Shown piece by piece: positions 6,901-23,680 of a stretch of 64,000 nt of DNA. Positions within the stretch are counted from its first letter, which is position 1; every line of letters begins with the position of its first letter. Source of the DNA: Roseomonas sp. GTDB taxonomy: Bacteria; Pseudomonadota; Alphaproteobacteria; Acetobacterales; Acetobacteraceae. The stretch lies in assembly GCA_020249925.1 (NCBI GenBank), contig JADCER010000019.1, forward strand, positions 1-64,000, given 5' to 3'. A model generated the notes under the pieces. The model was not told where the DNA came from. It worked only from the letters and a program-made list of their open reading frames with translations, and searched no databases. The translations under genes and the position numbers were made by a program.

Positions 6901-7143
6901 GATGACGATAAGCGCCTTGGATCGGTCGAGCGCCTCGATGATCCTATCGCCAAGATCGGGGGAGGTCGGCAATTCATCGCGGTCACGAAACACGGGGAAC
7001 AGCCTTGCCGGCACCGGGCCGTCATGCCCCGGGGCGCCAATGATCCGGCGTGGCATGCGATAGGATTCCAGCCGACGATGCAGCCAATCAGCGAATTGCC
7101 GATCCCGATGGCTGTAGCTGAGGAAGGCTGTGTACTGGGTCAT
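3958..7143 (-). CDS. TIR domain - TPR - Sel1 repeat membrane protein
   Basis: A 1061-residue protein. Residues 1-130 are a TIR domain (TAFLSYSHRDRQFADWL; SSRWVNEEI, where Glu95 aligns with the catalytic Glu of NAD-cleaving TIRs). One membrane segment lies near 210-230. Eight tandem 48-residue TPR-like units follow (core ALDAYEEALRIARSLAARDP), then a Pro/Ala-rich linker with PTPTPPA, and five Sel1 repeats at the C-terminus (WYRRAAEQGHAPAQNNLG). The start at 7143 is used because TIR homology begins there. TIR proteins of this kind act as NADases in bacterial immunity; here the repeats would sense or scaffold. It lies downstream of the STAND gene on the same strand, with a 416-nt gap, so it probably has its own promoter. 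The activity is inferred. Confidence 0.85.
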   Translation of the reverse strand: MTQYTAFLSYSHRDRQFADWLHRRLESYRMPRRIIGAPGHDGPVPARLFPVFRDRDELPTSPDLGDRIIEALDRSKALIVICSPDAASSRWVNEEILTFRRMGRGDRIFAIIARGEPHAGTEKECFPRALLEAKVAEDQPTRSVEPIAADARPEGDGRENALLKVIAGILGIGFEALRQRELEASRRRTRIAQGIAAAMILLAAGAGTAGWLALQARGVAVERQQEAEAAGERATVALHSAIQAANTLVFDLAEQFRHRGLPSTVTRLILDEARRLQDRLAPSFPEDATLQRSRGVALGSVGVLLAVQGDAAAALDAQEEALRIFRSLAARDPQNTDWARGVSVSLDRIGDMRRRAGDAAAALDAYEEALRIARSLAAHDPQNTDWARDVAVGLVQIGDLRRQAGDAGAALDAYAEALSIERAIAARVPQNTGSVRGLLSSLNRFGSLFAQAGDAAAARDAHEEALRIARGLAARDPQNTEWARDVLITLLLIGDLLPFSPVGDAAAARDAYEEALRIARALAARDPQNMEWTHDVTVSLQRIGDLRLQMGDAAAALDAQGEALRIARALGARDPQNTQWDRAVSLGQQRIGDLHLQMGDGAAALDAYKEALRIARSLAVRDPENAQWARTVSVNLERIGDLLFQAGDAAAARDVFEESLRIARSLAARDPRDVRWAADVISSLVRISDVTTGERRRAVLVEAIARVAPLAAADRLSGAQRRWPAMLQRMLDDHDAAERAAAAPAPQPAPPSVPATARPADSSPTPNAQPARPTPTPPAASASTRPGVTDCDRLAQPLRSDLGRSALVEGVASTAINVPRARVACEFAISAHPQEPRFQTWLGRALQAGGLQDQAAAAYRRAAEQGHAFAQNLLGFMLEYGHGVTQNPAEAVEWYRRAAEQGLADAQSNLGVALREGRGVTRNDPEAVRWFILAADQGDDVGQNNLAFMLAQGRGATQNLPEAVQWWRRAAEQGNAHAQFNLGLALERGRGVAPDEPKAVYWYRRAAEQGHAPAQNNLGVMLENGRGTPPNLEEAVMWYQRAARQNRPLAQEHLRRLNRSW

Positions 7144-7559
7144 GCGGCCATCCCGACGCAACCCGTCATGCTGATAAAACCTGGCAACCCGGCTTCTTGC
7201 GAAGAGCGCTTTAGCCCCTCCGCCGCCACGTCGCCAGGAACGGACATGAACATGCGATGCTTCGGCAGATCGCGCGGCATGAAATTCCCTCATCCGACAA
7301 ATAAATGTTCCCGAAGCGTCACCCCCGCGTCAACCCACAATCCGCAAATACCGCGCCACCACGTAAGGAGAAGAGAAAATGAGTAGCATAAATCCCATGG
7401 CGCGGCCACGGCACGGATAAGGGAGCGGGCAGCGCCTTGGCGGTGTGCGGTGGCGCAAGGATTTCCTAAAAATCGCACTGCATTCTGAAAACGTCGGCGA
7501 TGGAAACTGATGCCCGTTCGCGAATCCTTTGCGCGCGCGCCCTGGCTCAGGCATTCGTG
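7144..7559. other. Intergenic, no gene seen
   Basis: These 416 bases separate the start of the TIR gene from the end of the STAND gene. Open frames here lack ribosome sites or recognisable protein sequence. It should hold the TIR gene promoter. I saw no TGTG-N8-CACA site in it. Confidence 0.5.
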
Positions 7560-10500
7560 TCAGCACTCAGTGGATGGGCGGATTTGGTTGCGGTCCGCCG
7601 TGGGGTTTGGGTGCGGCGGCAGACCGAAGGCGTCGCGCTGGGCATCGCTCAGGCAGCGGGTGAGGCGGGAGCGAGCGAAGGCCAACAACTCCTGGCCGGT
7701 CGGCACGTCGAAGAGGAGCACGAGGCCATTAGAGGAGGTGGTCACCAGTCGACGCCCGTCCGGGCTGAACGCAGCGTAGATGACATTGCCAGTATGCCCT
7801 TCAAGGACGCTGGCGGCAGGCCGTTCGCCGTGCAAATCCCAAAGCCGCGTGGTGCTATCCCCGGACGCGGTGACCAGGCGTCGCCCGTCCGGGCTGAACG
7901 CGGCGTGGAGCACCGGGCCGGTATGCCCTTCGAGGAGTGCGGGGACGGGTCGCTCGCCGGTCAGATCCCAAAGCCGCACGGTGGGCCGCTCGGGGTTATC
8001 GGCGAGCGTGGACGCGGTAACCAGGCGCCGTCCATCCGGGCTGAAGGCTGAGATGTAGGTGTCGCCCCTCAGGCCGACATGCCGTTCGAGGACGGTATCG
8101 ACTGGCCGGTCGCCCGTGAGATCCCACAGCCGTGCAATGCCATCCTCGGATACAGCCACCAAGCGCCGCCCATCTGGGCTAATCACAATATAGCGCACCG
8201 GGCCGATATGCCATGCGAGGATTGTGGCGACCGGCCATTCGCCGGTGAGATCCCACAGTCGTGCAATACCATCCTCGGACACAGTCACCAGACGCCGCCC
8301 GTCCGCGCTGAACGAGGCGTTGAAGTAATCGCCAATATGCCCCTCGAAGATGGTCTTGACTGACCGCTCGCCAGTCAGATCCCACAGCCGCGCGGTGCCA
8401 TCCTCGGACACAGTCACCAGACGCCGCCCGTCCGCGCTGAACGGGGCGTTGAAGTCATCGCCAATATGCCCCTCGAAGATGGTCTCGACTGACCGCTCGC
8501 CAGTCAGATCCCACAGCCGCGCGGTGCCATCCTCAGACGCGGTGACCAGGCGCCGTCCGTCCGGGCTGAACATGGCGAAGTTTACCCAGCTGGTATGCCC
8601 CTTAACAATTGTGGCAACGGGTTGCGCACCGGTCAGATCCCACAGCCGAGCGGTGTGATCGTGGGACGCGGTCACCAAGCGTCGCCCGTTCGGGCTGAAG
8701 GCGGCGTGGACCACCGGGCCGACATGCCCCGCGAGGGCGGTGGCGACGGGCCGGTTGCCGGACAGATCCCACATGCGTACGGTATCATCCTCGGACGCGG
8801 TGACTAGGCGCCGTCCGTCCGGGCTGAACACAATGTAGTTCACCGAGCCAGTATGCCATTCGATAGTTGTGGCGGCTGACCGTTCGCCGGTCATGTTCCA
8901 AAGCCGCGCGGTGCCATCGGCGGACGCGGTGACTAGGCGCCGCCCGTCTGGGCTAAACACGGCACCATAGACCCTGGAGCGATGCCCTTCGAGTACCGCG
9001 ACGGCGCTCGGTTCGCCTGTTAGAGTCCACAGTCGGGCGCGGCCGTCGAAGGACGCTGTCACCAGGAGCCGCCCGTCCGGGCTGAAATCGGCGTCAAGTA
9101 CAAAGCTGTTAAGCGGGAGCGTCTTGGCGATGGGTCGCTCGCCGGTCAGATCCCACAGCCTCGTGGTACCACCGCTGGAGGTCACCAGACGCCGCCCGTC
9201 CGGGCTGAACGGGGCGCGACGGGAGATCACGCCTGCGAGAACGCCGGCGACGCTCGGTTCGCCGGTTAGATCCCACAGCCGCGTGGTGCCATCGGCGGAC
9301 GAAGTCGCCAAGCGCTTTCCTTCCGGACTGAATACGGCACTGTGGACCCGCCTGGCATGCCCTTCGAGAACGGTGGCGACAGGCCGATCGCCGCTCAGTT
9401 CCCACAGCCGTGCGATGTTTTGCGAGGACAAGGTCACCAGGCGCCGCCCGTCCGGGCTGAACGCGGCAAGGCGGACCGCGTCGGAATGCCCGTCGAGGAC
9501 GGTGGCGACGGGCTGCTCGCGGGTCAGGTCCCAGAGCCACGCGGTGCCATCCTCGGACGCGGTCACCAGGCGCCGCCCATCCGGGCTGAACGCAGCGTAC
9601 ACGAAGCCGGAATGCCCATCGAGGACGGTGGGGACTGGCCGCTCGCCGCTGAGGTCCCACAGCCACGCGGTGCCGTCTCGGGACGCGGTCACCACGCGCT
9701 GCCCGTCCGGGCTCAACGCTGCGCGGGTGAAGGAGTCGTTACTCCTCATGAGGACGAAGACTTCCCGGTTCATCAGCGTGCCGCGCAACAGTGCGCTCGC
9801 TGCCTCGGCACTCCAGGGCCGCTCGTCCCGTTCCGGCAGTACGGCCAGCGCCGCCAGCATCCCCGTCATGGCATCGCCGCGGTCGATCGCCTGCTCCGCC
9901 AGGATCGCGGTCGCGCGCGCTTGCTGCAGGAGCGCCGCGTCACGCTGCGCCGCCGTCTCGGCCGTAAGCCGTGCCTCACTATCGGCCCGCGCGCGCTGCT
10001 CCTCGGCAAAGCGGGCGGCGTCTGCGGCTCGCTCATTCGCCGCCTGCGTCAAGCTGCGCTGCGCCTCAGCCTCCCGCTCGCCGGCCGCCTCCGCCTCGGC
10101 GCGGTTGGCCTCGGCGATCTGTGCCTGGCGCTCCGCCTCCTGCGTTTGGCGGTTCGCAACCACCCATTGCCAGCCCGCAAAGCTGGCCATGAACGCAAGC
10201 ACGATCGCGGCCGCCATAGCCCCGCGAAAACGCCACAGGTCCCGCCGCCTTTCTCGATCCAGTTCTGCCACCGACCGCGTCACGAAGTCGCGCAACGCCT
10301 CGGGCAGCGCCGCGCCATGTGCTTTCAGCAGCGCCTGCGCCCCTTCCAGGGCCGTGCCGCGCAGCAGATCAGCCCTGCGCATGCCGCCCGCCTGCCATTC
10401 GCGCTGCGCCTGCTCCACCTTTGGTTTGGCGCGCAGCGACTCCGGTTCCAGGATAGCCTGCGCCCGCTTCCAGTTGCGCAGCAGCGCCTCATGCGCCACC

Positions 10501-12260
10501 CGCACCCAGATTTGGCGGGTGCCATCCGGCGCTTCCCGACCATCCGTCAGCAGCAGCCGGCCTTCCACCATCAGCGCCAGCAGCGCCTCCCGCGCCGGCG
10601 TATCCGCCAGTACCGCCGCTGGCGCCTCCCGCGCCAATACGCGCCCCTCCTCAGTGACGCCACCGACCAGGCCGAGCAGCAGCGCTGGCAGTTCTGCCGC
10701 CGCGGCGGGATCAGCCTTGGCAAAGACGCCCTCAGCTTGCTTGTCTACCACACCGCTCAAGCCACCAAATTCGCGATAGGCACGGAACGTCATGGTGTCG
10801 CTGTCGCGGTCACGCTCCTTAAATAGTCGCGCCAGGGTCATTTGCAGCAGCGGCAGAGCGTCCGCGTTGGGCACGGCGCGACGTAGCTCCACGGCTAGGT
10901 CCTGACCTCCGGCGTCGCGTTCGAAACGCAGGCCGGAGCGCAGCGCAGGCTCACGGATCACCGCCTCCAGCTCAGCGCCCTCCGGCGGTATCAGGTCCTG
11001 TGTGGCGCCGTCGCGCTTCAGCGCCAGAAGCAGCGGCTGTTCCAGCAGGCCGGCGTAGCGATCGTCGCGGAGCGTCGCCAGCACCCAGGCCTCACCGCCG
11101 CGCGCCAGTGCGGCCACCGCCGCGGCGAAGGCGGCGCGCTCCTCAGGCGTGGCAGCGAAGGCTTCCTCAAGCTGGTCCACCAGCAGCAGCAGCTTCAGGC
11201 GCCGCGGTGTCGTCGCCTTTGTTGCTGCGTTGGTCAGCGCGGCCTTCACTGAATTCGCCGCGGCCTCCGCATGGCCGCGCACTGTCGCGCACCAGACAGC
11301 CGGCGTGGGGGTGCCGGTTACCGCCAGTTCCGGTAATGCCGCGAACAATGCGCGCGCCAGCGCCGCCAGCGGGTCCTGGCCCGGCCGGAAGATTGCTTCG
11401 CGCCAGCCATCCACCCCGGGCGCCGCGCCCGCCTTGTTGAGCCGCGGCAATAGCCCGGCCCGCGCCAGTGAGGATTTCCCCGCCCCGCTGGCGCCCAGCA
11501 ACAGCAGGAAGGCACAGCCCCGCTGCGCTGCCGCGCGCAGATCCTGCAGGCAAAGCTCCAGCACCTGGTCGCGGCCGCAGAATACCGGGGCATGCTCAGC
11601 GTCATAGGCGTGGAAGCCGGGATAGGGCGTGCGGTCCTGGCCATCCTGGTCCCGGATGCGCCAGACTACGCCGTCGGCGCCGTGGCCGCGCTCGACCAGC
11701 CAGGCGCGTAGGTGTTTTTCCAGCAGTCTCTCGAATTCATCGGGGTCGGTGAACCTATTAAAGCCCGCCTTGGAGGCGCCGGTCTTGGTCTGCAGCCAGC
11801 GGCGCCTGATCGCCTCCATCAGTCCCAAGTTGCGCGCGAGTTCAGCGGCCTCGGCATGGCTCGGCGCGGTGAGCGGTGGCGCATTCTTCTGGAACAGCGC
11901 GACGTCCGGCAGTCGGTTCTGCCGGAGCAAATCCAGCGCGGTTTCGATTTCGAACACCGTGCCGCTCTCATACGGCTCACCGGTTTCGGGCCTCGGGTAG
12001 CGCACTTCATCCAGCGCCGTGCCGATAAGGTTCCAAAGAATGCCAATCACCAAATGGCAGTTGGCAGTCGCTTCAATTTGCGACTGGAAATCGGTATGGG
12101 CGCCGTAGGTTTTATCCTCCCAGAATTCTGGTTTGAGGCGCAGCCGACCTTCATATTCGCCATTCACACGTTCAATTACTGCCCGCGCCCGCGCCCGCTC
12201 AGCCGGGACATCATTCGGCGAGGAGACAAAGATGCGATATTCAGGCAGATCGATAGGCAA
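7560..12260 (-). CDS. DUF4062 - STAND NTPase - WD40 signalling protein
   Basis: A 1566-residue protein. Residues 1-130 match DUF4062 (YRIFVSSPNDVPAERARA). Residues 215-670 are a STAND-type NTPase with Walker A GASGAGKSS at 256-264, Walker B LLLLVDQLEE at 357-366 and a C-terminal winged-helix region. A membrane segment near 685-705 and a Glu/Ala/Arg coiled coil follow, then 16 WD40 repeats (FSPDGRRLVTASEDGTARLW) to the end. STAND proteins oligomerise when their repeat sensor meets a ligand and activate an effector; DUF4062 is a TIR-like effector region in such proteins. Two neighbouring WD repeats are almost identical in DNA (8287-8544), a sign of recent repeat gain. The ligand is unknown. Confidence 0.88.
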   Translation of the reverse strand: MPIDLPEYRIFVSSPNDVPAERARARAVIERVNGEYEGRLRLKPEFWEDKTYGAHTDFQSQIEATANCHLVIGILWNLIGTALDEVRYPRPETGEPYESGTVFEIETALDLLRQNRLPDVALFQKNAPPLTAPSHAEAAELARNLGLMEAIRRRWLQTKTGASKAGFNRFTDPDEFERLLEKHLRAWLVERGHGADGVVWRIRDQDGQDRTPYPGFHAYDAEHAPVFCGRDQVLELCLQDLRAAAQRGCAFLLLLGASGAGKSSLARAGLLPRLNKAGAAPGVDGWREAIFRPGQDPLAALARALFAALPELAVTGTPTPAVWCATVRGHAEAAANSVKAALTNAATKATTPRRLKLLLLVDQLEEAFAATPEERAAFAAAVAALARGGEAWVLATLRDDRYAGLLEQPLLLALKRDGATQDLIPPEGAELEAVIREPALRSGLRFERDAGGQDLAVELRRAVPNADALPLLQMTLARLFKERDRDSDTMTFRAYREFGGLSGVVDKQAEGVFAKADPAAAAELPALLLGLVGGVTEEGRVLAREAPAAVLADTPAREALLALMVEGRLLLTDGREAPDGTRQIWVRVAHEALLRNWKRAQAILEPESLRAKPKVEQAQREWQAGGMRRADLLRGTALEGAQALLKAHGAALPEALRDFVTRSVAELDRERRRDLWRFRGAMAAAIVLAFMASFAGWQWVVANRQTQEAERQAQIAEANRAEAEAAGEREAEAQRSLTQAANERAADAARFAEEQRARADSEARLTAETAAQRDAALLQQARATAILAEQAIDRGDAMTGMLAALAVLPERDERPWSAEAASALLRGTLMNREVFVLMRSNDSFTRAALSPDGQRVVTASRDGTAWLWDLSGERPVPTVLDGHSGFVYAAFSPDGRRLVTASEDGTAWLWDLTREQPVATVLDGHSDAVRLAAFSPDGRRLVTLSSQNIARLWELSGDRPVATVLEGHARRVHSAVFSPEGKRLATSSADGTTRLWDLTGEPSVAGVLAGVISRRAPFSPDGRRLVTSSGGTTRLWDLTGERPIAKTLPLNSFVLDADFSPDGRLLVTASFDGRARLWTLTGEPSAVAVLEGHRSRVYGAVFSPDGRRLVTASADGTARLWNMTGERSAATTIEWHTGSVNYIVFSPDGRRLVTASEDDTVRMWDLSGNRPVATALAGHVGPVVHAAFSPNGRRLVTASHDHTARLWDLTGAQPVATIVKGHTSWVNFAMFSPDGRRLVTASEDGTARLWDLTGERSVETIFEGHIGDDFNAPFSADGRRLVTVSEDGTARLWDLTGERSVKTIFEGHIGDYFNASFSADGRRLVTVSEDGIARLWDLTGEWPVATILAWHIGPVRYIVISPDGRRLVAVSEDGIARLWDLTGDRPVDTVLERHVGLRGDTYISAFSPDGRRLVTASTLADNPERPTVRLWDLTGERPVPALLEGHTGPVLHAAFSPDGRRLVTASGDSTTRLWDLHGERPAASVLEGHTGNVIYAAFSPDGRRLVTTSSNGLVLLFDVPTGQELLAFARSRLTRCLSDAQRDAFGLPPHPNPTADRNQIRPSTEC

Positions 12261-12429: not shown

Positions 12430-12433
12430 CCCC

Positions 12434-14032
12434 TCAGGCCTGCTGCAGCAAGGGTAGAAGCCGATCCGCCCACCCTTCCAGTTGCTTTACCCGACGCCTT
12501 GCCGGAGCAGTGCTTTCCGGCCGCGGGGGTTCGGGCGGCAACACCCATCCCAAGAACTTCGCAGTAACATTGTCCTGCTTCTGTGCCATGTCTGCTGCGG
12601 CACGTTCGGCGGCGGCCAAAATTTCCGCGCGTGCGCCATTCTGCGTGTCGGTGACTTGTTTGATTTTTGCAGCGGCGACTGCAGCGGGGCCTGTTACGGC
12701 CACGACAATTCCGCCAAAAAGCAACCCGCCTAGCCCTGCCGCAGCCACACCCCATGGATAGGGGCTTTGCGTGATAGTGATGGTTTGGTGCTGCGGGCTG
12801 CAAAGCTTGGTTACCTTCGCACGCGTCTGCCTATCGCTTGGGGGCAGCCCAAGCTCAAGCAGCACTTCATCGACCCGTTGGAGCAGTGCGGGCCCGGGGT
12901 TGACGCGTTGCAGGGCGCTGTTCAGCTCATTCTGATAAGTATCGTCAAACTTGACGTCTTCCTTGCCGATCTTCGATGCCACCGCTTTCCCCGCAATCTC
13001 CGCATCTTTTTTGAAATCGGCCAGTGCTTTCTTGACCAGTGGACTGAGCCTGTTGCGGAATGCGTCTCGGCGCCCGAGGTTCACGCGATGCAACGTATCA
13101 CGCACGATGCGCGCCTTCAGTTCATTTTGTGCCCTGGTGAGGGCCGGTTCCAGTCGCTGGCTGAAGGCGGTTCGGGCACGTTCTGCGCGTTCCTGACGAC
13201 TATGCCTTACAAGCGCGCAGTGCGGGCCCGAAAGCGTGTCCAGCCAGGCGCGCAGCGGGCCGGCACCGAAGCCGTATCCGCCGCGCCCAGCAGCAGCGCG
13301 TGCGCTGACTGGAAAGAGAGGCGCTTCTTCTGGCTTCAGACCCATGTCTTTGCAGCGCGCTGCAAGGCGACGCTCCAGCACCGGCCATTCCCGTTCCATA
13401 AAGCTTTGCCAAGCCGCTTCGTCATCCATCGGCAGGAATACATTGACAACGAAAGCCAGTGCAGCAGTGCCGCGTCTAGAAATGAAGTCACGCAGAAATT
13501 GGACTTCCGGCTCGGAAAGATGCTGCCTACCGTTGAACACCCAAACCAAAACATCCGCATCCACCGCCAATCGCATCAGCCGATCCGACATGGCGCGGTC
13601 GTCATTATGCCCAGGCGCATCAATCCAGACGGTCTCGGCGGGTATCGGCGCATGTGCGAGAGAGATGTCGATCCTGTCGGGCATTTGATCGATCGGACGC
13701 CGTTCACCATGCTCATCATAGATGGAGCAGAGCGCGGCAAGGGCGGCTGGTTCGCAGGCGACAGCCTTGTCTTGCCCGGCGAGGCGAGCGTGGTCGGCAC
13801 TGCCGGCGCTAAGAAAGGCCGCAGTGCCGGTTTCCGGAAGCGAACCTGTGGGCAGCACGTCGCGTCCAAGCAACATGTTCAGCAGGCTCGATTTTCCGGC
13901 ATTGTAATGACCTCCGAAACAGATCTCGGCTGTCGGTCGGCGAAGTATTGAAAGCGTCCGCGGCAGGCGGGCAGGCGTTTCAATCTCGTCGTATTGCGGC
14001 GGGCTGCTCGCCCAGTACGAATGGTCGGGCAT
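12434..14032 (-). CDS. Dynamin-like GTPase, second of a pair
   Basis: A 532-residue large GTPase. P-loop GHYNAGKSS is at 41-49, a G2-like threonine follows in PETGTAA, and G3 DAPGHND is at 139-145; the usual TKxD motif is not obvious, with VVNVFLP in its place. A hydrophobic, Gly-rich stretch near 440-470 (GVAAAGLGGLLFGGIVVAV) could insert in the membrane. GGAGAA lies just upstream of the chosen start; an extension of 16 codons to 14080 is possible. Bacterial dynamins often come in pairs that remodel membranes, and some protect against phage. It follows the other dynamin by 79 nt, so the two are likely co-transcribed. Confidence 0.82.
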   Translation of the reverse strand: MPDHSYWASSPPQYDEIETPARLPRTLSILRRPTAEICFGGHYNAGKSSLLNMLLGRDVLPTGSLPETGTAAFLSAGSADHARLAGQDKAVACEPAALAALCSIYDEHGERRPIDQMPDRIDISLAHAPIPAETVWIDAPGHNDDRAMSDRLMRLAVDADVLVWVFNGRQHLSEPEVQFLRDFISRRGTAALAFVVNVFLPMDDEAAWQSFMEREWPVLERRLAARCKDMGLKPEEAPLFPVSARAAAGRGGYGFGAGPLRAWLDTLSGPHCALVRHSRQERAERARTAFSQRLEPALTRAQNELKARIVRDTLHRVNLGRRDAFRNRLSPLVKKALADFKKDAEIAGKAVASKIGKEDVKFDDTYQNELNSALQRVNPGPALLQRVDEVLLELGLPPSDRQTRAKVTKLCSPQHQTITITQSPYPWGVAAAGLGGLLFGGIVVAVTGPAAVAAAKIKQVTDTQNGARAEILAAAERAAADMAQKQDNVTAKFLGWVLPPEPPRPESTAPARRRVKQLEGWADRLLPLLQQA

Positions 14033-14111
14033 GGGTGTTCTCCGTTCGGTTGGTTCGCTTGGAAGGGAGGCCGCGCCCAAGCCTCAGGGCATGGACGCGA
14101 CCAGATTGTTC

Positions 14112-16187
14112 TCAGGCAGCTGCCATGGCTGGGACACGCTTGGCCTCAATCTCGAGCGCGGTGAGCATCGCCAGGACCTCTTCGATGCGACGGCGGCCCG
14201 CCTCTGCATTCGCCGCCAAGAGTTCTTTGGCGTCGAGCGTTCCGCGGTTCATGATTCGCAGATTTTCGAGGCTTTTTTCCTGCTCATCAAGGACGGCATC
14301 GAGGCCGGTCATCACTGCTTCCTTGGTTTGGCGCAAGCTGACAGCAATGCTCTGGGTGATCTCCTCAATCGCCTTGCCCTCAAACGCCATGTCGTGGATC
14401 ATGCGGCGTGCGCCCTCCAGCGCCTTTTCGCGAATGCGCTGCTCCAAACGGTAAAGTGCACCAGCAGCGGCACCGCTAAAAAAAGCAGTGACGCCGATAG
14501 CCAGGGCGGCGGGCGCTCCGATAGTAATGCCGAAGGTAGTTGCCGCAACCAGCACAGCCGCCTTGGCCGCAGTCAACGCGATTGCTGCACCCGCCACGCC
14601 GCGGTACCCTGTGACAGCAAAGACCGCCCCGAGCGGGCCCAAAGCCACAACACCAAGCCCAGCTGAGACCAGCCGATCTTGCAAGCTCACAGCCGGCGCG
14701 CCACCCACTGCGTCGGGGTTGACCCGCGCGATCTCCAGGCTCATGGAATTGAGACGTTCAGTGATGCCCGAGTATTCCCGGTCCAGCTCGCGCCGTGCAC
14801 CTTCAAGGCCAGGCATCAGGTCACGCTGCAAGCCGCTCTCCGTAGGAGGGGCACTGCCCCAACGGGTGAGTTGCTCGTTGATGATGGCATTGACGGCCTC
14901 GCGGGCTTCCTTTTGGGCGCGCTGCGTCACCAGCGCAGCCGCCTTGTTCGCGGTACCGGACAAGCTAGGCAATGGCCGCTCCGCAAAGCGGCCGGGCAAA
15001 CTTAGGTCAAGCTCCCGACACATTGCCTGATAGCTGGATCGCGTGTCTGAAACCGCACGGTCAATCATGCGATCCAAGATGTCCTGCACGCGGTCACGCC
15101 GTTCCTTGATTTCGCGCATGTCACTGTCGCATTGATCCAGGACCGCGGTTACGCTGGCGCTATCGGCGCTGGCCACGTTGAATATCTTGGTGAGATCATC
15201 GTCGAGAACACGGCAGATAGCCTTTGCACCGTCAATGGCCGCACGCTGCTTGGATGGATAGGCACTTTCAACGAGAAAGCGACCCAACCGCTGCTCCATC
15301 GCAACGATACCGGATGACGCGACACGTTCGGCATCACCACGAGCATAGCCTTCGAAAGCATCCGCGGCATTGATAAAGGCGATTTCGGGATCCAGCTTCT
15401 CTGCCGCCGGTTCTTTGCGCAACCCAGCAAGGCGCCCATTCAACGCATTGCGAAGGCGCGCAACCTGATCGTCGCGGAACAGGTTCACGACTGGGAAGAC
15501 ATAGCCCGTTTTGTCAAGCACTTCGATCAGCGCGGCCTGTTCATCAAGTCCGGCCATCATGTCGCTGCGGAAGACAAAGAGGCCCGCATCAGTCTCAGAC
15601 AGCGCATCGCGAGTGATTTCCGTGCGTGCCGGATCTTCGCTCAACCCTGGGCTGTCTACCAGTTCCAGACCGCTGCGCAGCAAACCGACAGGTAGGCCGA
15701 TCTCGAAAGACTTGACGGTGGCGAGGCGGCTCCCCGCCTTGATGGTACCGTCGGGAGACGCGGTCTCACTATAGATACGCGCCTGATCGAGGTAGTCATC
15801 AAAGGTCCATGGCTCCACGCGGCCATCGAAGAGGCGCGCGACCACCACGGGTTTGGCCGCGTAGCTGATCTTGGTCAGTACCGCGGTGCAGGGTAGCGTA
15901 TCTACCGGAAGCAGGCCTTTGTTCTTCACAGCGCCAGTGGCCCCGGTGGAACTCAAAAGGGCATTGAGGAAGGTGGACTTGCCCACCTTGAAGCGGCCTA
16001 CCACCATCAAACGAAAATTCTCGGCGGTAAGCCGGGCGCGGAGCGCCTGGCTACTGCGGGTGATATGCCCCAGCGAGAATTCCGAAGACACCTCCTGCAG
16101 GGGCTTCGTGGCTTCTTCAAAGCGCCTCTCGAATTTGGTTCGAGCCGCCTTGATGATGTCATTGAGGCTGGTATCGTGCGAGTCCAT
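14112..16187 (-). CDS. Dynamin-like GTPase, first of a pair
   Basis: A 691-residue GTPase with P-loop GRFKVGKST at 64-72, G2 threonine in DTLPCTAVLT near 101, G3 DSPGL at 178-182 and VVNLFRDDQ as a possible G4. Long helical regions follow. Residues about 510-580 form a strongly hydrophobic double segment (AIALTAAKAAVLVAATTFG, AALAIGVTAFFSGAAAGAL), as in membrane-inserting paddle regions of bacterial dynamins. The start at 16187 is chosen because AGGAG stands 7 nt before it; the ATG at 16193 is too close to that site. It heads the operon and faces the CRP-type regulator across a 173-nt gap containing a CRP-like palindrome. Confidence 0.85.
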   Translation of the reverse strand: MDSHDTSLNDIIKAARTKFERRFEEATKPLQEVSSEFSLGHITRSSQALRARLTAENFRLMVVGRFKVGKSTFLNALLSSTGATGAVKNKGLLPVDTLPCTAVLTKISYAAKPVVVARLFDGRVEPWTFDDYLDQARIYSETASPDGTIKAGSRLATVKSFEIGLPVGLLRSGLELVDSPGLSEDPARTEITRDALSETDAGLFVFRSDMMAGLDEQAALIEVLDKTGYVFPVVNLFRDDQVARLRNALNGRLAGLRKEPAAEKLDPEIAFINAADAFEGYARGDAERVASSGIVAMEQRLGRFLVESAYPSKQRAAIDGAKAICRVLDDDLTKIFNVASADSASVTAVLDQCDSDMREIKERRDRVQDILDRMIDRAVSDTRSSYQAMCRELDLSLPGRFAERPLPSLSGTANKAAALVTQRAQKEAREAVNAIINEQLTRWGSAPPTESGLQRDLMPGLEGARRELDREYSGITERLNSMSLEIARVNPDAVGGAPAVSLQDRLVSAGLGVVALGPLGAVFAVTGYRGVAGAAIALTAAKAAVLVAATTFGITIGAPAALAIGVTAFFSGAAAGALYRLEQRIREKALEGARRMIHDMAFEGKAIEEITQSIAVSLRQTKEAVMTGLDAVLDEQEKSLENLRIMNRGTLDAKELLAANAEAGRRRIEEVLAMLTALEIEAKRVPAMAAA

Positions 16188-16258
16188 GTGCATTCTCCTG
16201 TGTCTGGCGTCACGCCGTTCGTGAGCGAGAGGAAAAAAGCACTGCTGGAGTTTTGCGC

Positions 16259-16274
16259 TGTGTGATTTATCACA
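16259..16274. promoter_or_regulatory. CRP-type operator 1 (regulator/dynamin divergent promoter)
   Basis: TGTGTGATTTATCACA fits TGTG-N8-CACA, the geometry of CRP sites. Its centre is 94.5 nt before the regulator start at 16361 and 79.5 nt before the dynamin start at 16187. Autoregulation and control of the dynamin operon are inferred. Confidence 0.6.
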
Positions 16275-16360
16275 TCGGGGCCGGGGGGGCGGCCTTGCGC
16301 TGCCCCGCGTTGATGGACACCCTAGCGTCGCCGCATGGTTAGACGGGCCTGGAGGAAAAG

Positions 16361-19030
16361 ATGCTACAATTCGAGAGCGATCTGATCAAGGCGCTTAGGA
16401 CGATCCAAGAACAGCAAGCTAGACCGCTGAAATTGCCGAAGAAGGCCGGGAGTATGGTATATTCCTCCGGCGAGGCTTCAGATAAGCTCTTTCTTATCAC
16501 CAGCGGCGTCGTCGAGTTGAGTCGGCCGCTTGACGACGAAATGCCGCTCACTAGCGGGCCGATGCGGGGCCAACCGCGAGGCCAAGCGCGCGTGAAGGTC
16601 AAGGTCACCAAGTTGGGCTGGGTAGGGCCGGGCGGGATGGTAGGTGAACTTGAATTCCATGCCCGGCGAGATGCGCAGCGGCAGATCTACCCCAAGCGCT
16701 ACTTCAATGCCCGCGCGATCACCGACGTCCAGTTACTCGAACTGCCCTATACCCGCCTGCTTGAAGCGCTACCGGGACAGCCGATCGTAGAGGAGCAGTT
16801 ACGGCGACATGTGGTGTCATGGCTCGACCATATGGCGGAAACTATCGGCGCCGCGCGCTTCCAGCCCATGCAGGTGCGGCTGGCGCGCGTCCTGCGCGAC
16901 CTGGCCATCGCTTCAGCCCCGTCCGGCCCGGTCGCCCCGACGAACCGCGCGGTCATCGCGCTGGAAAGCTGCCCTCCACAGGATGAAATCGCCATCGCCG
17001 TTGGCGAGGAGCGGGAGACGATCAGCCGGCAGATGAAGCAGTGGGAGCGGTCTGGCATTCTACGCAACGGCGAAAGGCAGATGCTGATCATCACTGACTT
17101 CCAACGGCTAAGCGAGATCGCCCAGCTCGGCGAGGCGACGCGGCGCCAGGGTCATGACGATTCGCGCATGCGGATCGATACCCTGCTCGACCGTGGGGAT
17201 AATTACCGCGCGCGCAACTTGGCGCTACAGTTGGTCGAGAGAACCTATCCCCGCAGCCCCGAAATACAGCACCGTGCCTGCATAGCCTGTGCCCGGGCCG
17301 GCGGCGCCGAGGAAGCAATGCGCCTTGTTGTGCGCTTCGGTTTCGACGCTGATCTGGCGACATTGTGGAAAACGGTGGGGAAAGGCTTCGCCAACCCGCT
17401 GGTGCGCGGCGCGCGGGACCGCGAGGAGGATGACAGTTCGGAAGCTTGGGAAGATGACCAATCGATTTTGGCTGAACGGAAAAAGCGGCTCGACCAGCTG
17501 ATCGAGGACATCTCCGTCCTGGCCGGCCGCCTCGCCAAGGACGCGGCATTCGCGCCGGGAACCAAGTCTAACCGTCAAGCATTCCTGCGCCGCGCCCATC
17601 AGCGCTATAATGAGGTCTATGAAAGCACGGGTCGCCCCTTCTCGGGCATCAACGCGGCTGCCATGGCAGCCTTACTTGGTGACGCGTCTGAAGCGACACG
17701 CATCGCTGGCTTGGTGCAGGCGAGGCTACCGCCGAAGATCGAGAACTATTGGCAGGCAGCGACGCGCGCCGAGGCCTCGGCCTTGCTCGGCTTTGCCCAA
17801 CAAGCGCAGCTCAACATGGCCGCGGCGGCAAAAATGGAAGATGCAACGCCGGGCCGGCGAGCATCGACCCGGCGGCAGCTGACCCGTCTGAAGGGGGCGG
17901 TCGCGCAGGAATGCCTTGACGCGATGCTCGAAGCGCTGCCCGTGGAGGTCCCGATCGCCTATTCCGGCCACATGATGCTTGGCGATCGGATGGATAAGAC
18001 CGCGCAGGCGTCGGCGGCGTTCAATCTTGGTGAAAAACTTAAAGTCAAGCTAGCAGAAGCGCGCGTTGGTTCAGCCTATGGCGCACTCGCAGCCGGGTCC
18101 GATATTCTGATCGCGGAGGAGGTCCTGCGACAACGAGCTTCACTGCATGTGGTACTCCCCACGCGCCCTGCCGAATTCGTTGTGGCATCGGTTAACCCAG
18201 GCGATCCGCCGGGTGAACCGGGTCATTGGCGGCGTCGTTTCGACCATTGCCTGGCGCAGGCCGCAAGCGTGACCATCCTGCACGAGGGGGCGGTCGGTTT
18301 GACGGAGCGAGATGCAGTGTTCCAGGCTGGTTTTCGTTTTGCCGCCGGCCTCGCGCTACTGCAAGCGGAGGAATTGGTCACGCGAGCCTCGATGTTGGCC
18401 GTTTACGATGGTGGGCCGGCCAACAACATCGCCGGCACTGCCATGGCGCTCCGTACCTGGGAGGCTACAGGCGAGGCTCTGCATGTGCTTGACTGTGACT
18501 GGCGCCAAGCGGGCAAAGGGTCCGACATAGTGGCTAAGACGCCGTTCCGACCAGTGATCTTTGTCTGGTCGGAACCGGATCGGGTCGGCAAGGGTGCCGG
18601 CCAAATCAGGAAAGCTGTGGAAGGCGTGATGGGTTCCGATCGACCATTGCTGGGCAAGCAGACCCAAGATGCCGTCGTTGCGCTAGTTTGCGAGGGAATG
18701 GCCGAAGCCGCAGATTTGGCGATACGACTGGCCCAAGATCTCCCTAATCGGGGTGTCACGCCACGCATCATTTGCGATTTCGGCTTGGCACTCGACCCGA
18801 ATGGTCAACCGAGCCAGGCGCGCATTGCCCAGATGCGCGGCTGCAAAGAGATGCCCGAAATCCCTCCCGGCCAGGTCGCCGCCACCGAAGGCTTTGCCGC
18901 CGAGGCGTGCCTTGAAAAGCATTGCAACCATAGCTTCCAGCCGATGGGGCGCGTGGCCGTCGCCGCGAAGGACAAGGCATCAGGTATGCCGCTGCCATCG
19001 GTCAGGATGTTTCAGGTCTTGCCCCCTTAA
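16361..19030 (+). CDS. CRP-family regulator fused to TPR/TRAFs-like and SLOG-like domains
   Basis: An 889-residue protein with GGAGG five bases before the start. Residues 30-150 are a cyclic-nucleotide-binding fold (FLITSGVVELSRP; GGMVGELEF) carrying an insert of about 25 residues. Residues 160-260 are a CRP-type HTH whose recognition helix RETISR (218-223) keeps Arg, Glu and Arg at the places of CRP Arg180, Glu181 and Arg185. Residues 260-520 are helical repeats like the TRAFs-binding/DUF4071 region (PFSGINAAAMAALLGDASEA). From about 530 a Rossmann-like SLOG-type region follows (IAYSGHMML, GALAAGSDILIAEEVL, LHVVLP). SLOG domains bind nucleotides or nucleotide-derived signals. The whole suggests a transcription factor that itself senses a signal. 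The last two domain calls are from pattern memory and need a profile search. Confidence 0.8.
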   Translation: MLQFESDLIKALRTIQEQQARPLKLPKKAGSMVYSSGEASDKLFLITSGVVELSRPLDDEMPLTSGPMRGQPRGQARVKVKVTKLGWVGPGGMVGELEFHARRDAQRQIYPKRYFNARAITDVQLLELPYTRLLEALPGQPIVEEQLRRHVVSWLDHMAETIGAARFQPMQVRLARVLRDLAIASAPSGPVAPTNRAVIALESCPPQDEIAIAVGEERETISRQMKQWERSGILRNGERQMLIITDFQRLSEIAQLGEATRRQGHDDSRMRIDTLLDRGDNYRARNLALQLVERTYPRSPEIQHRACIACARAGGAEEAMRLVVRFGFDADLATLWKTVGKGFANPLVRGARDREEDDSSEAWEDDQSILAERKKRLDQLIEDISVLAGRLAKDAAFAPGTKSNRQAFLRRAHQRYNEVYESTGRPFSGINAAAMAALLGDASEATRIAGLVQARLPPKIENYWQAATRAEASALLGFAQQAQLNMAAAAKMEDATPGRRASTRRQLTRLKGAVAQECLDAMLEALPVEVPIAYSGHMMLGDRMDKTAQASAAFNLGEKLKVKLAEARVGSAYGALAAGSDILIAEEVLRQRASLHVVLPTRPAEFVVASVNPGDPPGEPGHWRRRFDHCLAQAASVTILHEGAVGLTERDAVFQAGFRFAAGLALLQAEELVTRASMLAVYDGGPANNIAGTAMALRTWEATGEALHVLDCDWRQAGKGSDIVAKTPFRPVIFVWSEPDRVGKGAGQIRKAVEGVMGSDRPLLGKQTQDAVVALVCEGMAEAADLAIRLAQDLPNRGVTPRIICDFGLALDPNGQPSQARIAQMRGCKEMPEIPPGQVAATEGFAAEACLEKHCNHSFQPMGRVAVAAKDKASGMPLPSVRMFQVLPP

Positions 19031-19047
19031 GCAGCCTGAACCTCAAC

Positions 19048-19063
19048 TGTGCGGAAGCTCACA
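19048..19063. promoter_or_regulatory. CRP-type operator 2
   Basis: TGTGCGGAAGCTCACA fits TGTG-N8-CACA. It lies 17 bp after the regulator stop, centred 87.5 nt before the next start codon at 19143. Confidence 0.55.
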
Positions 19064-19142
19064 GCAAGATTCGCGCTAGGGCCGGATATCTAAAGAGGGG
19101 GCTTACCTCTGCCCACTGTCAATCCAGGCCAAGGAGCGCGCC

Positions 19143-19739
19143 ATGTCAATCGAGATCAACTCATCCCCGATTGTCCAGGGGTTTACTCTGGCGACCGTGA
19201 TCCCCGCCGTCGCCTCCACGCTGAAACAGGCGCAACGTGAAGCCGCAGGAGCGCTGCATTGCCTCGCGCGCTATCACGCGCGCGTGAAGGCGGTTGGCGG
19301 GACGAAATTGCCGCCTGACGCTGCTACGCGAATGGCTGCGCGGCGCTTTGGCCAAGTCCTGGTCGAACAGACGATCAATGGCAGCACCTTCTTTCTGGCC
19401 GTGAAGTTAGCACTGATGGGCTTCGGTGCGGCGGGGGGAGTCACTGCTCAGGTCGCCATAACGGGCAACACCATTATTACCCCCCACCAGACCCAGCGAT
19501 TCAACCCAGCGCGTATCTTGTTTGATGCGCTGGGGAGTGAGCCCGACTGGGTGAATTGCCTATCTGAGGAGGCGCTCGCGATATTTGCGTACCAGTCGGG
19601 TGCCTTCGCTGCCCTTTGTGGCTACGGCGAAGGAAGCCCTGAAGAGACACCAACCTCACCGGCTCAACCCGCCCCGTCGCACTTCCGTGTGACAGTCATC
19701 CGGCCCCATTCTGCTTCGCTCAGCTGGCGCTCAACGTGA
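19143..19739 (+). CDS. Unknown protein in the CRP-like regulon, 198 residues
   Basis: AAGGAG stands six bases before the start. The protein has amphipathic helices at 15-60, a hydrophobic Gly-rich segment at about 78-110 (FFLAVKLALMGFGAAGGVTA) and a Pro/Ser/Thr-rich, probably disordered tail after 165. No family is recognised. It follows the regulator in the same direction but has its own CRP-type palindrome, so it is likely a regulated target rather than only a read-through partner. It may associate with the membrane. Confidence 0.65.
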   Translation: MSIEINSSPIVQGFTLATVIPAVASTLKQAQREAAGALHCLARYHARVKAVGGTKLPPDAATRMAARRFGQVLVEQTINGSTFFLAVKLALMGFGAAGGVTAQVAITGNTIITPHQTQRFNPARILFDALGSEPDWVNCLSEEALAIFAYQSGAFAALCGYGEGSPEETPTSPAQPAPSHFRVTVIRPHSASLSWRST

Positions 19740-19865
19740 AAAGCGTATCTTCGTTGGTACGCATGAATGCCTGTTCCAATCTTAAAGGTGACGCTTACCA
19801 GCGGGCTTTTGCGGCCCTAGGTTGCGGATGATCTGGGGGGCGGCTTTTCGCCCTTGAACAAATGT

Positions 19866-19994
19866 ATGAGCGCTCACCGTGACACGGATGTAGTTTCTGC
19901 CAAGGACTATGCGCTTGCGCGGGAGAACGAAGGACTTCGTCGAGAGGTCCGTATCCTGAAGGAGGAGAGGTACACCCTAAAAAAGCCACTTTGA
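19866..19994 (+). pseudogene. IS3-type transposase OrfA remnant
   Basis: A 42-codon frame contains ARENEGLRREVRILKEERYT, like the C-terminal leucine-zipper end of IS3-family OrfA (normally REN..LR.E..ILKK). The HTH half is missing and no OrfB follows. It marks a past insertion at the edge of this block. The match is short, so the call is tentative. Confidence 0.4.
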
Positions 19995-20211
19995 CCGCCG
20001 ACAATCAAGCTGAGAGAGCAGCTACAATCATGGGGCTGGCCCACCTATGTCTCAAAGGATCAGGCTGAAACCAGCATATTTTTCGAATTGATCTTCGCAC
20101 GATACAAATAGCGTTCCATGCTGATCACCGCTAATCAGCCCTTTGGCGAATCGGGGCGCATCTTTCCAGGTCAATCCATGACAATCGCCGCCATCGAAAG
20201 GGTGGTATGAA

Positions 20212-20243
20212 TGTGCGCCGGTCGGGGACTCGACCGGCGCACA
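20212..20243 (-). terminator. Strong hairpin after the glycine-zipper gene
   Basis: Perfect 13-bp arms (20212-20224 and 20231-20243) enclose a 6-nt loop, 10 bp past the stop of the minus-strand gene at 20253. The T-tract is weak, but position and stability fit a terminator. Confidence 0.55.
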
Positions 20244-20252
20244 AAAGATGGT

Positions 20253-20408
20253 TCAGGAGGATGCGCCTCCTGCCCCCCCGATCTTGGCGCCAATGGCGGC
20301 TCCGGGAGGTCCGCCAAGCACGAAACCGAGAATGGCACCGACAGCAATGCCGATGACGGCATTCGTAATTGGCTGCGGAATTTTTGCGGTATTGTTGGTT
20401 TGCGACAT
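20253..20408 (-). CDS. Small glycine-zipper membrane protein, 51 residues
   Basis: The frame reads MSQTNNTAKIPQPITNAVIG followed by a hydrophobic stretch rich in GxxxG-type spacing (AVGAILGFVLGGPPGAAIGA) and a Gly/Ala/Ser end. Such glycine-zipper peptides sit in membranes and can oligomerise. AAGGAAC precedes the start. A CRP-type palindrome is centred 88.5 nt upstream and a strong hairpin follows the stop, which together argue that this is a real gene. Possible roles include a membrane stress protein or a small toxin-like effector; neither can be proved. Confidence 0.62.
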   Translation of the reverse strand: MSQTNNTAKIPQPITNAVIGIAVGAILGFVLGGPPGAAIGAKIGGAGGASS

Positions 20409-20488
20409 GATACGTTCCTTCTCTTCCGGTTGTGGGGAGAGCGCTAACCATCCCCTGTTTCTGCCTAGCCGATGTTGGACATCCTGAT

Positions 20489-20504
20489 TGTGAGAAATCG
20501 CACA
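20489..20504. promoter_or_regulatory. CRP-type operator 3
   Basis: TGTGAGAAATCGCACA fits TGTG-N8-CACA, centred 88.5 nt before the start of the minus-strand gene at 20408. Confidence 0.55.
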
Positions 20505-20540
20505 AGCTTCAATAAAGCTTGACTGGTGGCATCTATTTGC

Positions 20541-20927
20541 TCAGGGCACCTCGTGTAGATCATACTGCCTTGGCAATATTTTATATATACAAGCTATGTT
20601 ATCTCTCCACCACAGCGCGCGGGTGCAGAGCATCGCGAATCCAACAAAGACCCCGATCAGCTGGGCACGCAACAGCACGTCGAGCCGCGCTGGAAGCGGA
20701 ATGGCGATGATCGCGATGACCAAGGCTTTTTCCGGTGCGAAGCGAAGTACACGTAATGCGATCGCAGCGGCGATGACGGCCGCTGTCGCTGCGCAAGCCA
20801 AGCCAAGCCAAACATCCGCCGTACCAAAAGCAAACTGCGAAAGACCAAGGCTAGCCTTGCCCCAGGTGCCCGCGCATGAGGAGACTGCAAGGCGCTTTAT
20901 CGCTGCTTGGCGTCCAAGGTTGATCAT
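20541..20927 (-). CDS. Small membrane protein in the CRP-like regulon, 128 residues
   Basis: The start at 20927 has CAGGAGA eight bases upstream. Hydrophobic segments are at about 42-62 (GLACAATAAVIAAAIALRVL) and 70-85 (ALVIAIIAIPLPARL), with a third weaker one at 92-106 (LIGVFVGFAMLCTRALW). The family is unknown. Two CRP-type palindromes lie upstream, centred 62.5 and 93.5 nt before the start and 31 bp apart. It probably acts in the inner membrane. Confidence 0.6.
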   Translation of the reverse strand: MINLGRQAAIKRLAVSSCAGTWGKASLGLSQFAFGTADVWLGLACAATAAVIAAAIALRVLRFAPEKALVIAIIAIPLPARLDVLLRAQLIGVFVGFAMLCTRALWWRDNIACIYKILPRQYDLHEVP

Positions 20928-20981
20928 GACTGCTCTCCTGTTTGGTAACAGGTGCAGTCTCTGCATTCGTGATGGACCTGC

Positions 20982-20997
20982 TGTGTGCTTCGCCACA
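20982..20997. promoter_or_regulatory. CRP-type operator 4
   Basis: TGTGTGCTTCGCCACA fits TGTG-N8-CACA. It is centred 31 bp (about three helical turns) from operator 5, as in tandem sites bound on one face of the helix. Confidence 0.55.
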
Positions 20998-21012
20998 GTC
21001 GGCACCGCTGCC

Positions 21013-21028
21013 TGTGAGCAAGCGCACA
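21013..21028. promoter_or_regulatory. CRP-type operator 5
   Basis: TGTGAGCAAGCGCACA fits TGTG-N8-CACA and shares 13 of 16 bases with operator 3. Its centre is 93.5 nt before the minus-strand start at 20927. Confidence 0.55.
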
Positions 21029-21089
21029 ATGCCAGCTTACCACTCTGGTTTAATGTTTCAGTCAGTTGCGTGGAAACGAGGACGAGATA

Positions 21090-21248
21090 ATGAAATTTTC
21101 TGATTTGCCGTTAGGCTCGGCACTATTAGAAAACGAAGGGCGAGACAGACCGCGCAATCTTCACCAGTGTTTCGTCATAGATGATATCGAGCATCGCGAA
21201 GGAAGGCAGCCGCTACCCAACAGAGCAATGATGAGGAGGCCCATATGA
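21090..21248 (+). CDS. Possible 52-residue leader ORF
   Basis: A frame starting MKFSDLPLGSALLENEGRD has GAGGACGAG upstream and ends in an ATGA overlap with the WD40 gene. Codon usage is poorer in GC at third positions than in neighbours and there is no known homology. It may only be a translated leader or chance. Confidence 0.25.
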   Translation: MKFSDLPLGSALLENEGRDRPRNLHQCFVIDDIEHREGRQPLPNRAMMRRPI

Positions 21249-23311: not shown

Positions 23312-23336
23312 GGACCGCTTACTCTCGCGGTCCTTT
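23311..23336 (+). terminator. Probable terminator after WD40 gene
   Basis: Arms AGGACCGC (23311-23318) and GCGGTCCT (23327-23334) enclose an 8-nt loop and are followed by TT. The left arm begins at the stop codon. Confidence 0.55.
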
Positions 23337-23344
23337 CCACCACC

Positions 23345-23551
23345 GAAGCCTCTAACCCGCGTGGCGATATACAACACTGCCTTGCGGCGGCGCAGAATAC
23401 GCTGTGGATTGCAGAACTCACTTATCGCATCGCCGAGCGCGACCGCGGCGCCATCTGGGGGGCGATGAACGCGCCAGGCGAAGACGCCGCCATCAGCCGG
23501 GACAGCCTGCCCCTGGCGTCGCGCGGGTTCAGGATGGTGGAGAGGGTGTGA
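23345..23551 (+). pseudogene. Gene fragment, C-terminal 68 codons
   Basis: One open frame without a start reads ...LTYRIAERDRGAIWGAMNAP then GEDAAISRDSLPLASRGFR and ends at 23551. It looks like the tail of a real protein, but I do not recognise the family. The rest of 23312-23680 shows nothing coding. Confidence 0.3.
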
Positions 23552-23680
23552 GAACGCTGGCCAAGCCGTCAGAATTGAGAGCACCGACTCTTCTTCACTC
23601 CCCTTGGGGTTACGATGATCCAGAATTCCTCCGTTACTCAAATCGCCAGTTTGGCTCTTTAGGCACTTGCACCTATCGGA

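What the first reader, a model, noticed from the sequence alone, without database searches (positions are those of the whole stretch)
16259..21028. Compact CRP-type regulon: five TGTG-N8-CACA palindromes at fixed distance from four genes
Sites at 16259, 19048, 20489, 20982 and 21013 all fit TGTG-N8-CACA. One site is centred 87.5-94.5 nt upstream of each of four starts (regulator 16361, unknown protein 19143, glycine-zipper protein 20408, membrane protein 20927). The last gene has a second site 31 bp away, three helical turns. A pattern with eight fixed bases should occur about once per 65 kb by chance at equal base use, yet five lie within 4.8 kb, all intergenic. The adjacent regulator keeps the CRP contact residues Arg, Glu, Arg in its recognition helix. 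Together this points to a local, self-regulated circuit whose targets include small membrane proteins.
Basis: partly seen in the sequence, partly recalled or inferred. Interest (0 to 1): 0.85.

Follow-up and report, generated by a model that had tools for sequence, protein, structure and literature searches.

The report
Private operators of a pseudo-cyclase CRP regulator
Five matching DNA palindromes sit between the genes of one small bacterial gene cluster, and they likely let a single unusual regulator (a CRP-like DNA-binding protein joined to a sensor that looks like a dead signalling enzyme) control its own gene and a neighbouring set of probable phage-defence, membrane-acting genes.

Summary
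All five TGTG-N8-CACA sites are where stated and intergenic. The whole 3.94 Mb genome has 20 such sites; the other 15 all lie inside predicted ORFs. The 9 members found (one N-terminally truncated) form one clade, and none has the full cyclase residue set that 62 of 66 relatives without a CRP half keep. The circuit recurs in another genus of the same family (genome G305): dynamin pair, small membrane protein and 198-aa ortholog, plus a CRP-like gene cut by its contig end. Five TGTG-N8-CACA-type sites (2 exact, 3 with one mismatch) lie in 597 intergenic bp there. Most likely reading: a self-contained circuit in which an intramolecular nucleotide-sensing module switches a CRP-type DNA-binding half that controls a dynamin-centred, defence-like locus. 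Binding, ligand, sign of regulation and defence function are untested. New variant of a known kind.

The parts
16259..16274 (.). Operator 1, TGTGTGATTTATCACA; divergent: 94.5 nt upstream of the regulator and 79.5 nt upstream of dynamin A
   Evidence: also holds the perfect 14-bp dyad TGTGATTTATCACA in an N6 register
19048..19063 (.). Operator 2, 87.5 nt upstream of the 198-aa gene
   Evidence: exact extended motif
20489..20504 (.). Operator 3, 88.5 nt upstream of the glycine-zipper gene
   Evidence: exact extended motif
20982..20997 (.). Operator 4 (weakest by the matrix, 16.1 bits), 62.5 nt upstream of the small membrane protein gene
21013..21028 (.). Operator 5, 93.5 nt upstream of the same gene, 31 bp from operator 4
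   Evidence: exact extended motif
16361..19030 (+). Regulator, 889 aa: cNMP-binding + Crp-type HTH (res. ~4-248), ASK1-like TPR-S (262-530), SLOG (528-716), degenerate class III cyclase (~720-889)
   Evidence: Pfam (TPR-S below its cut-off); model pLDDT 85; structural matches; cyclase homology; incomplete catalytic set
14112..16187 (-). Dynamin-like GTPase A (LeoA/LeoBC-like), predicted target through operator 1
   Evidence: Dynamin_N 1.7e-14, LeoA 4.6e-18; full-length ortholog beside a like site in G305
12434..14038 (-). Dynamin-like GTPase B, predicted same operon as A
   Evidence: Dynamin_N 4.9e-14; G305 counterpart, 29%
19143..19739 (+). 198-aa all-helical protein of unknown family, predicted target
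   Evidence: no Pfam; 18 homologues; model mean pLDDT 70; next to two dynamin-like genes also in G428
20253..20408 (-). 51-aa glycine-zipper membrane peptide, predicted target
   Evidence: Gly-zipper_YMGG 2.8e-05, below its cut-off; one hydrophobic segment
20541..20927 (-). 128-aa protein with two hydrophobic segments, predicted target with two operators
   Evidence: no Pfam
7560..12260 (-). nSTAND1 NTPase with WD40 repeats, same strand downstream of the dynamins; possible distal member
   Evidence: nSTAND1 1.2e-76; an nSTAND1 gene also adjoins the 198-aa ortholog in G305
3958..7293 (-). TIR-domain protein with TPR/Sel1 repeats, possible distal member of the island
   Evidence: TIR_2 8.2e-13

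Best explanation
The five palindromes are predicted to be the private operators of the adjacent 889-aa CRP-family regulator, which likely controls its own gene, the divergent dynamin-pair genes and three small genes as one self-contained, probably defensive, circuit. The regulator's N-terminal half has the CRP fold and a CRP-type recognition helix (R-E-T-I-S-R), which fits TGTG half-sites. Its C-terminal half (TPR-S, SLOG, cyclase-like domain) is homologous to a family of TPR-S-SLOG-nucleotide cyclases; its catalytic residue set is incomplete, so this half most likely acts as an intramolecular sensor of a nucleotide or invasion signal and not as an enzyme. On signal it would reposition the CRP half as a dimer on the operators. 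The site positions (62.5 to 94.5 nt upstream of starts here, with no consensus sigma-70 promoters found beside them) make activation the likelier sign. The products (two dynamin-like GTPases, a glycine-zipper peptide, a small membrane protein and a helical partner protein) would then act at the membrane, as the phage-protective dynamin DynA does.
For: Sites. Recognition helix. Conservation in another genus (G305): dynB-dynA (-), small membrane protein (-), CRP-like gene (+, cut by the contig end) and the 198-aa ortholog beside nSTAND1 on another contig; sites 73.5 (dynA), 63.5 (small protein), 169.5 (CRP-like) and 58.5 plus 136.5 nt (198-aa) upstream of the starts; 2 exact and 5 with at most one mismatch in 597 intergenic bp (stretches chosen round these genes) against 0.0165 and 0.31 in shuffles, 0 of 2000 shuffles reaching 5. 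Genome-wide in G305, TGTGGG-N4-CCCACA with at most one mismatch occurs 8 times, 4 at this system, and both exact ones are there. Domain build. Cyclase residues D1, D2, R, E all present in 62 of 66 unfused and 0 of 9 CRP-fused members. The 9 fused members are one clade, 98/96, on TPR-S+SLOG columns alone; 0 of 20 unfused members scanned show a CRP domain by Pfam. Dynamin-defence link: PADLOC LeoA/LeoBC; B. subtilis DynA delays phage lysis (PMC8844932, abstract).
Against: No binding or expression data. In G305 the regulator's HTH and sensor half are not seen (contig end), G305 is 82% complete, and its CRP-like fragment is a weak match (E 0.007 with the A1 profile; cNMP_binding below cut-off). 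Counted genome-wide, the motifs are not in excess of the reversed controls: 12 against 10 in the own genome and 8 against 12 in G305; the signal is their clustering. Site-to-start distance is not conserved. The one other full-length relative with DNA (L030) has a different recognition helix and no such sites in 20 kb. The 198-aa ortholog in G428 has no TGTG-N8-CACA in 30 kb. Single catalytic positions survive in some fused members (D1 in 5, D2 in 3, R in 1, E in 0 of 9; alignment uncertain there), so loss of activity is predicted, not shown. Defence function is by association only. No sigma-70-like promoter lies beside the sites, so activation is inferred.
Confidence: 0.72

Rival explanations
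1. Same regulator and operators, but it is an autorepressor that keeps the island silent until a signal releases it, as BrxR and RptR do for other defence islands.
For: Local repressors of defence islands are established (BrxR, PMC9122601, passages; RptR, PMC12255303, abstract). The divergent site could shut two promoters at once.
Against: Sites lie 62.5-94.5 nt upstream of start codons with no consensus promoter overlapping them; CRP-family proteins mostly activate from such positions (recalled). Transcription starts are unmapped.
Confidence: 0.33
2. A housekeeping CRP paralogue binds the sites: the genome has one at C21:21960 with recognition helix RESVSR and a canonical-looking cyclic-nucleotide pocket (by eye).
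For: Searches show this paralogue; its helix also has R-E...R.
Against: A global regulator should have intergenic sites elsewhere, but 15 of 15 outside sites are inside predicted ORFs and the exact extended motif is confined to this cluster. The other two Crp-type HTH paralogues above the cut-off have FNR-like helices (LETVSR; PESLSR); two matches below the cut-off were not followed.
Confidence: 0.12
3. The CRP half is still a cyclic-nucleotide receptor fed by some other cyclase, and the fused sensor only scaffolds or tunes it.
Against: The Ser/Thr after the arginine is Tyr here; no other TPR-S relative was found in the own genome at E <= 1e-10 (1 match, itself). Other kinds of cyclase were not searched for.
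Confidence: 0.3
4. The palindromes are chance or mobile repeats with no regulatory role.
For: Single sites of this kind occur by chance about once per 260 kb (reversed control).
Against: and recurrence with changed half-site letters in another genus; no shared flanking sequence among the five by eye.
Confidence: 0.02

Closest known systems
CRP/FNR family (E. coli CRP, M. tuberculosis CRP, GlxR)
   Same: cNMP-binding fold, wing-HTH, RET recognition helix, TGTG-N8-CACA operators of canonical geometry (geometry recalled)
   Different: 260-residue CRP half is fused to about 630 residues of TPR-S, SLOG and pseudo-cyclase; intergenic sites confined to one locus
TPR-S / SLOG / class III cyclase proteins (PF20308, PF00211), mostly from Alphaproteobacteria
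   Same: same three-domain order and sequence homology over residues ~376-868
   Different: 62 of 66 keep the four catalytic positions and none of 20 scanned has a DNA-binding half; here the reverse
NTP-dependent conflict systems of Kaur et al., eLife 2020 (PMC7159879; authors recalled)
   Same: inactive cNMP-cyclase domains, CRP-like HTH domains and CRP-like cNMP transcription-factor genes linked to some systems (passages)
   Different: the passages seen describe separate genes or vWA-fused effectors, not one polypeptide of CRP + TPR-S + SLOG + pseudo-cyclase; 'dynamin' does not occur in that text
BrxR (WYL) and RptR, local regulators of phage-defence islands
   Same: island-encoded, palindrome- or repeat-binding control of defence genes
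   Different: unrelated proteins, repressors; no cyclase-derived sensor
LeoABC and DynA bacterial dynamin-like proteins
   Same: membrane-acting GTPases; DynA protects a population against phage
   Different: window pair is divergent in sequence and sits beside a dedicated CRP-type regulator

Membership tests
CRP/FNR transcription factors | cNMP-binding domain plus Crp-type HTH | tested here: met
   PF00027 29.4 bits and PF13545 38 bits, both above cut-off; Foldseek to GlxR/CRP, best E 5.6e-12
CRP/FNR transcription factors | recognition helix with R-E...R/K and TGTG-type sites | tested here: met
   RETISR aligned with RETVNK of M. tuberculosis CRP; five TGTG-N8-CACA sites. E. coli contact residues are recalled
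CRP/FNR transcription factors | cAMP-binding pocket intact | tested here: inconclusive
   GE pair and Arg kept, Ser/Thr replaced by Tyr (sequence)
CRP/FNR transcription factors | binds the predicted DNA sites | not testable with these tools
   needs EMSA or footprinting
TPR-S (PF20308) | TPR-S profile match over its cut-off | tested here: inconclusive
SLOG superfamily | SLOG Rossmann-like fold | tested here: met
active class III nucleotide cyclase | two metal-binding Asp and the conserved R and E of the ARxEP motif, all four together | tested here: not met
   0 of 9 CRP-fused members have the set (singly D1 5, D2 3, R 1, E 0 of 9); 62 of 66 unfused relatives have it
class III cyclase fold (pseudo-enzyme) | homology to class III cyclases | tested here: met
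   C-terminal profiles of 8 fused against unfused members: hhalign probability 96.4, E 1.3e-9; family profile hits cyclases, best E 6.7e-16
LeoABC-like bacterial dynamins | Dynamin_N GTPase domain, paired genes | tested here: met
   paired also in G305
LeoABC-like bacterial dynamins | anti-phage activity | not testable with these tools
   needs plaque assays

The most novel reading that the evidence does not exclude
A cyclase and its cAMP-receptor protein have collapsed into one polypeptide: a signalling cyclase of the TPR-S/SLOG immune-sensor kind lost catalysis when it gained a CRP half, turning a diffusible second-messenger pathway into a one-molecule transcriptional alarm that switches on a private dynamin-based membrane defence.
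Probability: 0.4. Interest if true: 0.82.

Novelty: new variant of a known kind. Interest (0 to 1): 0.64.

Why it matters
How defence-like islands are switched on is poorly known. Here one locus carries regulator, operators and targets in under 10 kb, with a second-genus example, so binding, signal and output can be tested directly. The exchange of cyclase activity for a CRP half, in one clade, would show a second-messenger route being replaced by an intramolecular one. It also offers a handle on dynamin-like defence genes and on an unnamed 198-aa family that lay beside dynamin-like genes in all three genomes in which its surroundings could be compared (window, G305 by synteny over two contigs, G428).

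Tried and rejected
Tried without result: near-DNA search of plasmids with window 7500-26500 (no match); genome-contig scan with the single regulator (12 stretches, none confirmed); viral-contig scan with A1 (75 stretches, none confirmed); sigma-70 promoter scan (2 found, 1.5 expected, neither beside the sites); DNA context of the closest relatives P0002 and P0003 could not be reached. Searching 397 family genomes with the dynamin A profile gave matches in 22, but full-length ones only in the own genome and G305; the other listed hits cover part of the profile, and their 28 loci (98.7 kb) hold no TGTG-N8-CACA. A motif-count line ('motif-based triple') used a flawed slice and is not used. VIA-align showed no cyclase rows among its 50 entries; the N-terminal domain filled that list, so cyclase homology rests. 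No fold search was made with the 198-aa model.

Considered and rejected: chance cluster; global CRP operator set; the idea that site-to-start distance is fixed by function (G305 distances differ). Of the 7 one-mismatch extended sites elsewhere in the genome, 5 lie in predicted ORFs and 2 (L094, L097) lie at or between the ends of convergent ORFs. Rows dropped before counts: five rows (L027, L052, L054, L067, L080) and L030 were left out of the hhalign profiles, L027 and rows under 200 residues were left out (74 rows used). One search kept all 9 and 66 rows, gaps counted as absent. P0003 lacks its N-terminus, so its CRP half is inferred. That the 66 others lack a CRP half was checked by Pfam for 20 of them, mostly the longest (0 of 20), and by phmmer with three fused N-termini against the 65 ORFs taken from the loci, L030 among them (only L030 itself matched). 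One search scored only the 7994 candidates sharing most words. Of the 17 other exact sites in G305, 14 were examined: 13 in open frames of 100 aa or more (a weak test in GC-rich DNA), 1 intergenic; three (C468, two in C510) were not examined.

Papers: PMC7159879 and PMC9122601 passages only; PMC8844932 and PMC12255303 abstract and outline; PMC4159319 and PMC6459960 only in search listings. That this fusion was not found in print rests on the searches and 87 of an open-licence library only.
Full report
OBSERVATION. The five sites are real, exact and intergenic (0.65 expected, 0 of 100 shuffles with 5). In the whole genome (3,939,139 bases, window = contig C11 bases 1-64000) the pattern occurs 20 times, against 15 for the reversed control. 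I took the 15 outside places with about 1 kb on each side: all 15 fall inside predicted ORFs (heuristic calls). The five are also the top five in the window for a matrix built from them, 16.1-22.6 bits against 11.7 for the next (circular in part). They share more than the eight fixed bases: positions 8-9 are A/T in all five, and three fit TGTGNGNWWNCNCACA, which has exactly three matches in the genome, all here. With one mismatch there are 12 places (reversed control 10), 5 of them here; of the 7 others 5 are in predicted ORFs and 2 lie at or between the ends of convergent ORFs. So the genome-wide number is ordinary; the clustering between genes is not.

TARGETS. A fifth target was missed: the site at 16259 lies in the divergent region of the regulator and a dynamin-like gene (likely start ATG 16187, AGGAG seven bases upstream). 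That gene and the next (12434-14038) are a dynamin-like pair matching PADLOC LeoA/LeoBC profiles, followed on the same strand by an nSTAND1-WD40 protein and a TIR-TPR/Sel1 protein. Transcription units are not shown.

CONSERVATION. The 198-aa protein led to G305, another genus of the family; it was found in 1 of 396 other family genomes. G305 contig C256 has the ortholog (49% over the alignment) beside an nSTAND1 gene. The exact site TGTGGGGCGACCCACA lies 58.5 nt upstream, and a one-mismatch site 136.5 nt upstream. Contig C523 has dynamin B and A on the minus strand (29% and 33% identity), a small two-segment membrane protein on the minus strand, and on the plus strand a gene whose visible 110 residues look like a cNMP-binding domain, cut by the contig end. 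Sites lie 73.5, 63.5 and 169.5 nt upstream of the starts of dynamin A, the small protein and the CRP-like gene. In 597 intergenic bases chosen round these genes there are 2 exact and 5 at-most-one-mismatch sites, against 0.0165 and 0.31 in 2000 shuffles; none reached 5. TGTGGG-N4-CCCACA with at most one mismatch occurs 8 times in G305 (reversed control 12), 4 of them here, including both exact ones. The half-sites differ in letters (TGTGGG against mostly TGTGMG), yet the inner G6 and C11 are both kept in 7 of the 10 sites (3 of 5 and 4 of 5), as expected of co-evolving operators. In a third genome (G428, another family of the class; 2 of 385 class genomes including our own had the 198-aa family) the 198-aa ortholog lies among two dynamin-like and two HSP70-FGE genes, with no CRP gene noticed by eye in the 20 kb listed and no such sites in 30 kb. 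That ties the 198-aa family to dynamins and the sites to the CRP-bearing version.

MECHANISM. Shown: the sites, their clustering between genes, their recurrence, the domain build and the incomplete catalytic set. Inferred: that the regulator binds them (recognition helix RETISR); that the TPR-S-SLOG-pseudo-cyclase half senses a nucleotide-type or invasion signal; that activation is likelier than repression (site positions, no consensus promoter); that the output is membrane defence (LeoA/DynA analogy, TIR and STAND neighbours; L030 also sits beside a TIR-SIR2 and an nSTAND1 gene). The pocket keeps a GE pair and Arg113 but has Tyr where Ser/Thr is usual (recalled), so residual cyclic-nucleotide binding is possible.

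COMPARISON. Inactive cyclase domains, CRP-like HTH domains and linked CRP-like genes are known in NTP-dependent conflict systems (PMC7159879, passages), and local regulators of defence islands are known (BrxR, RptR). A single protein with CRP, TPR-S, SLOG and pseudo-cyclase over a private dynamin locus was not found in the searches made. The host is probably an Acetobacteraceae member: the best plasmid match of another window part is Pseudoroseomonas at 78.6% over 10% of the query; this is an inference.

Noticed in passing
L030:7663-15113: Another CRP-TPR-S fusion (820 aa, Rhodospirillaceae MAG) with a different recognition helix sits beside a SIR2-TIR protein and an nSTAND1 protein.
   Followed up: partly
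L116:2181-16131 (G428): 198-aa ortholog inside a run with two dynamin-like GTPases and two HSP70 proteins fused to an FGE-sulfatase-like domain: an unusual fusion next to dynamins.
   Followed up: partly
L018, L019, L021-L026 (same genus): TPR-S-SLOG-cyclases with a complete catalytic set occur in 8 of 12 other sampled genomes of the same genus; their signalling partner is unknown.
   Followed up: no
L055, L058, L066: Verrucomicrobial TPR-S-cyclase relatives carry an N-terminal RyR domain, another kind of input or output fused to the same sensor core.
   Followed up: no
L136:2001-2016 (G305 C359): A perfect 16-bp dyad TGTGCGCTAGCGCACA in an apparently intergenic stretch beside sugar-nucleotide-like genes; relation to the system unknown.
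   Followed up: no
16261-16274 and 20984-20997: Two of the five sites can also be read as TGTG-N6-CACA; at 16261 this is a perfect dyad, so the register used is open.
   Followed up: partly
172-1488 and 60830-62083: Genes starting almost alike (the first is an N6/N4 DNA methylase by Pfam) near both ends of the 65.3 kb contig, with a recombinase-like gene (by eye) at 42525-43850; possible mobile or assembly-repeat boundary.
   Followed up: no
L084:33-3632: The G305 nSTAND1 protein beside the 198-aa gene (cut at its N-terminus by the contig end) shows no WD40 match, unlike the window's nSTAND1 protein.
   Followed up: no
L135:9782-10111: The truncated CRP-like gene of G305 is 40.9% GC against 65.8% for its contig, which suggests recent transfer.
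   Followed up: partly
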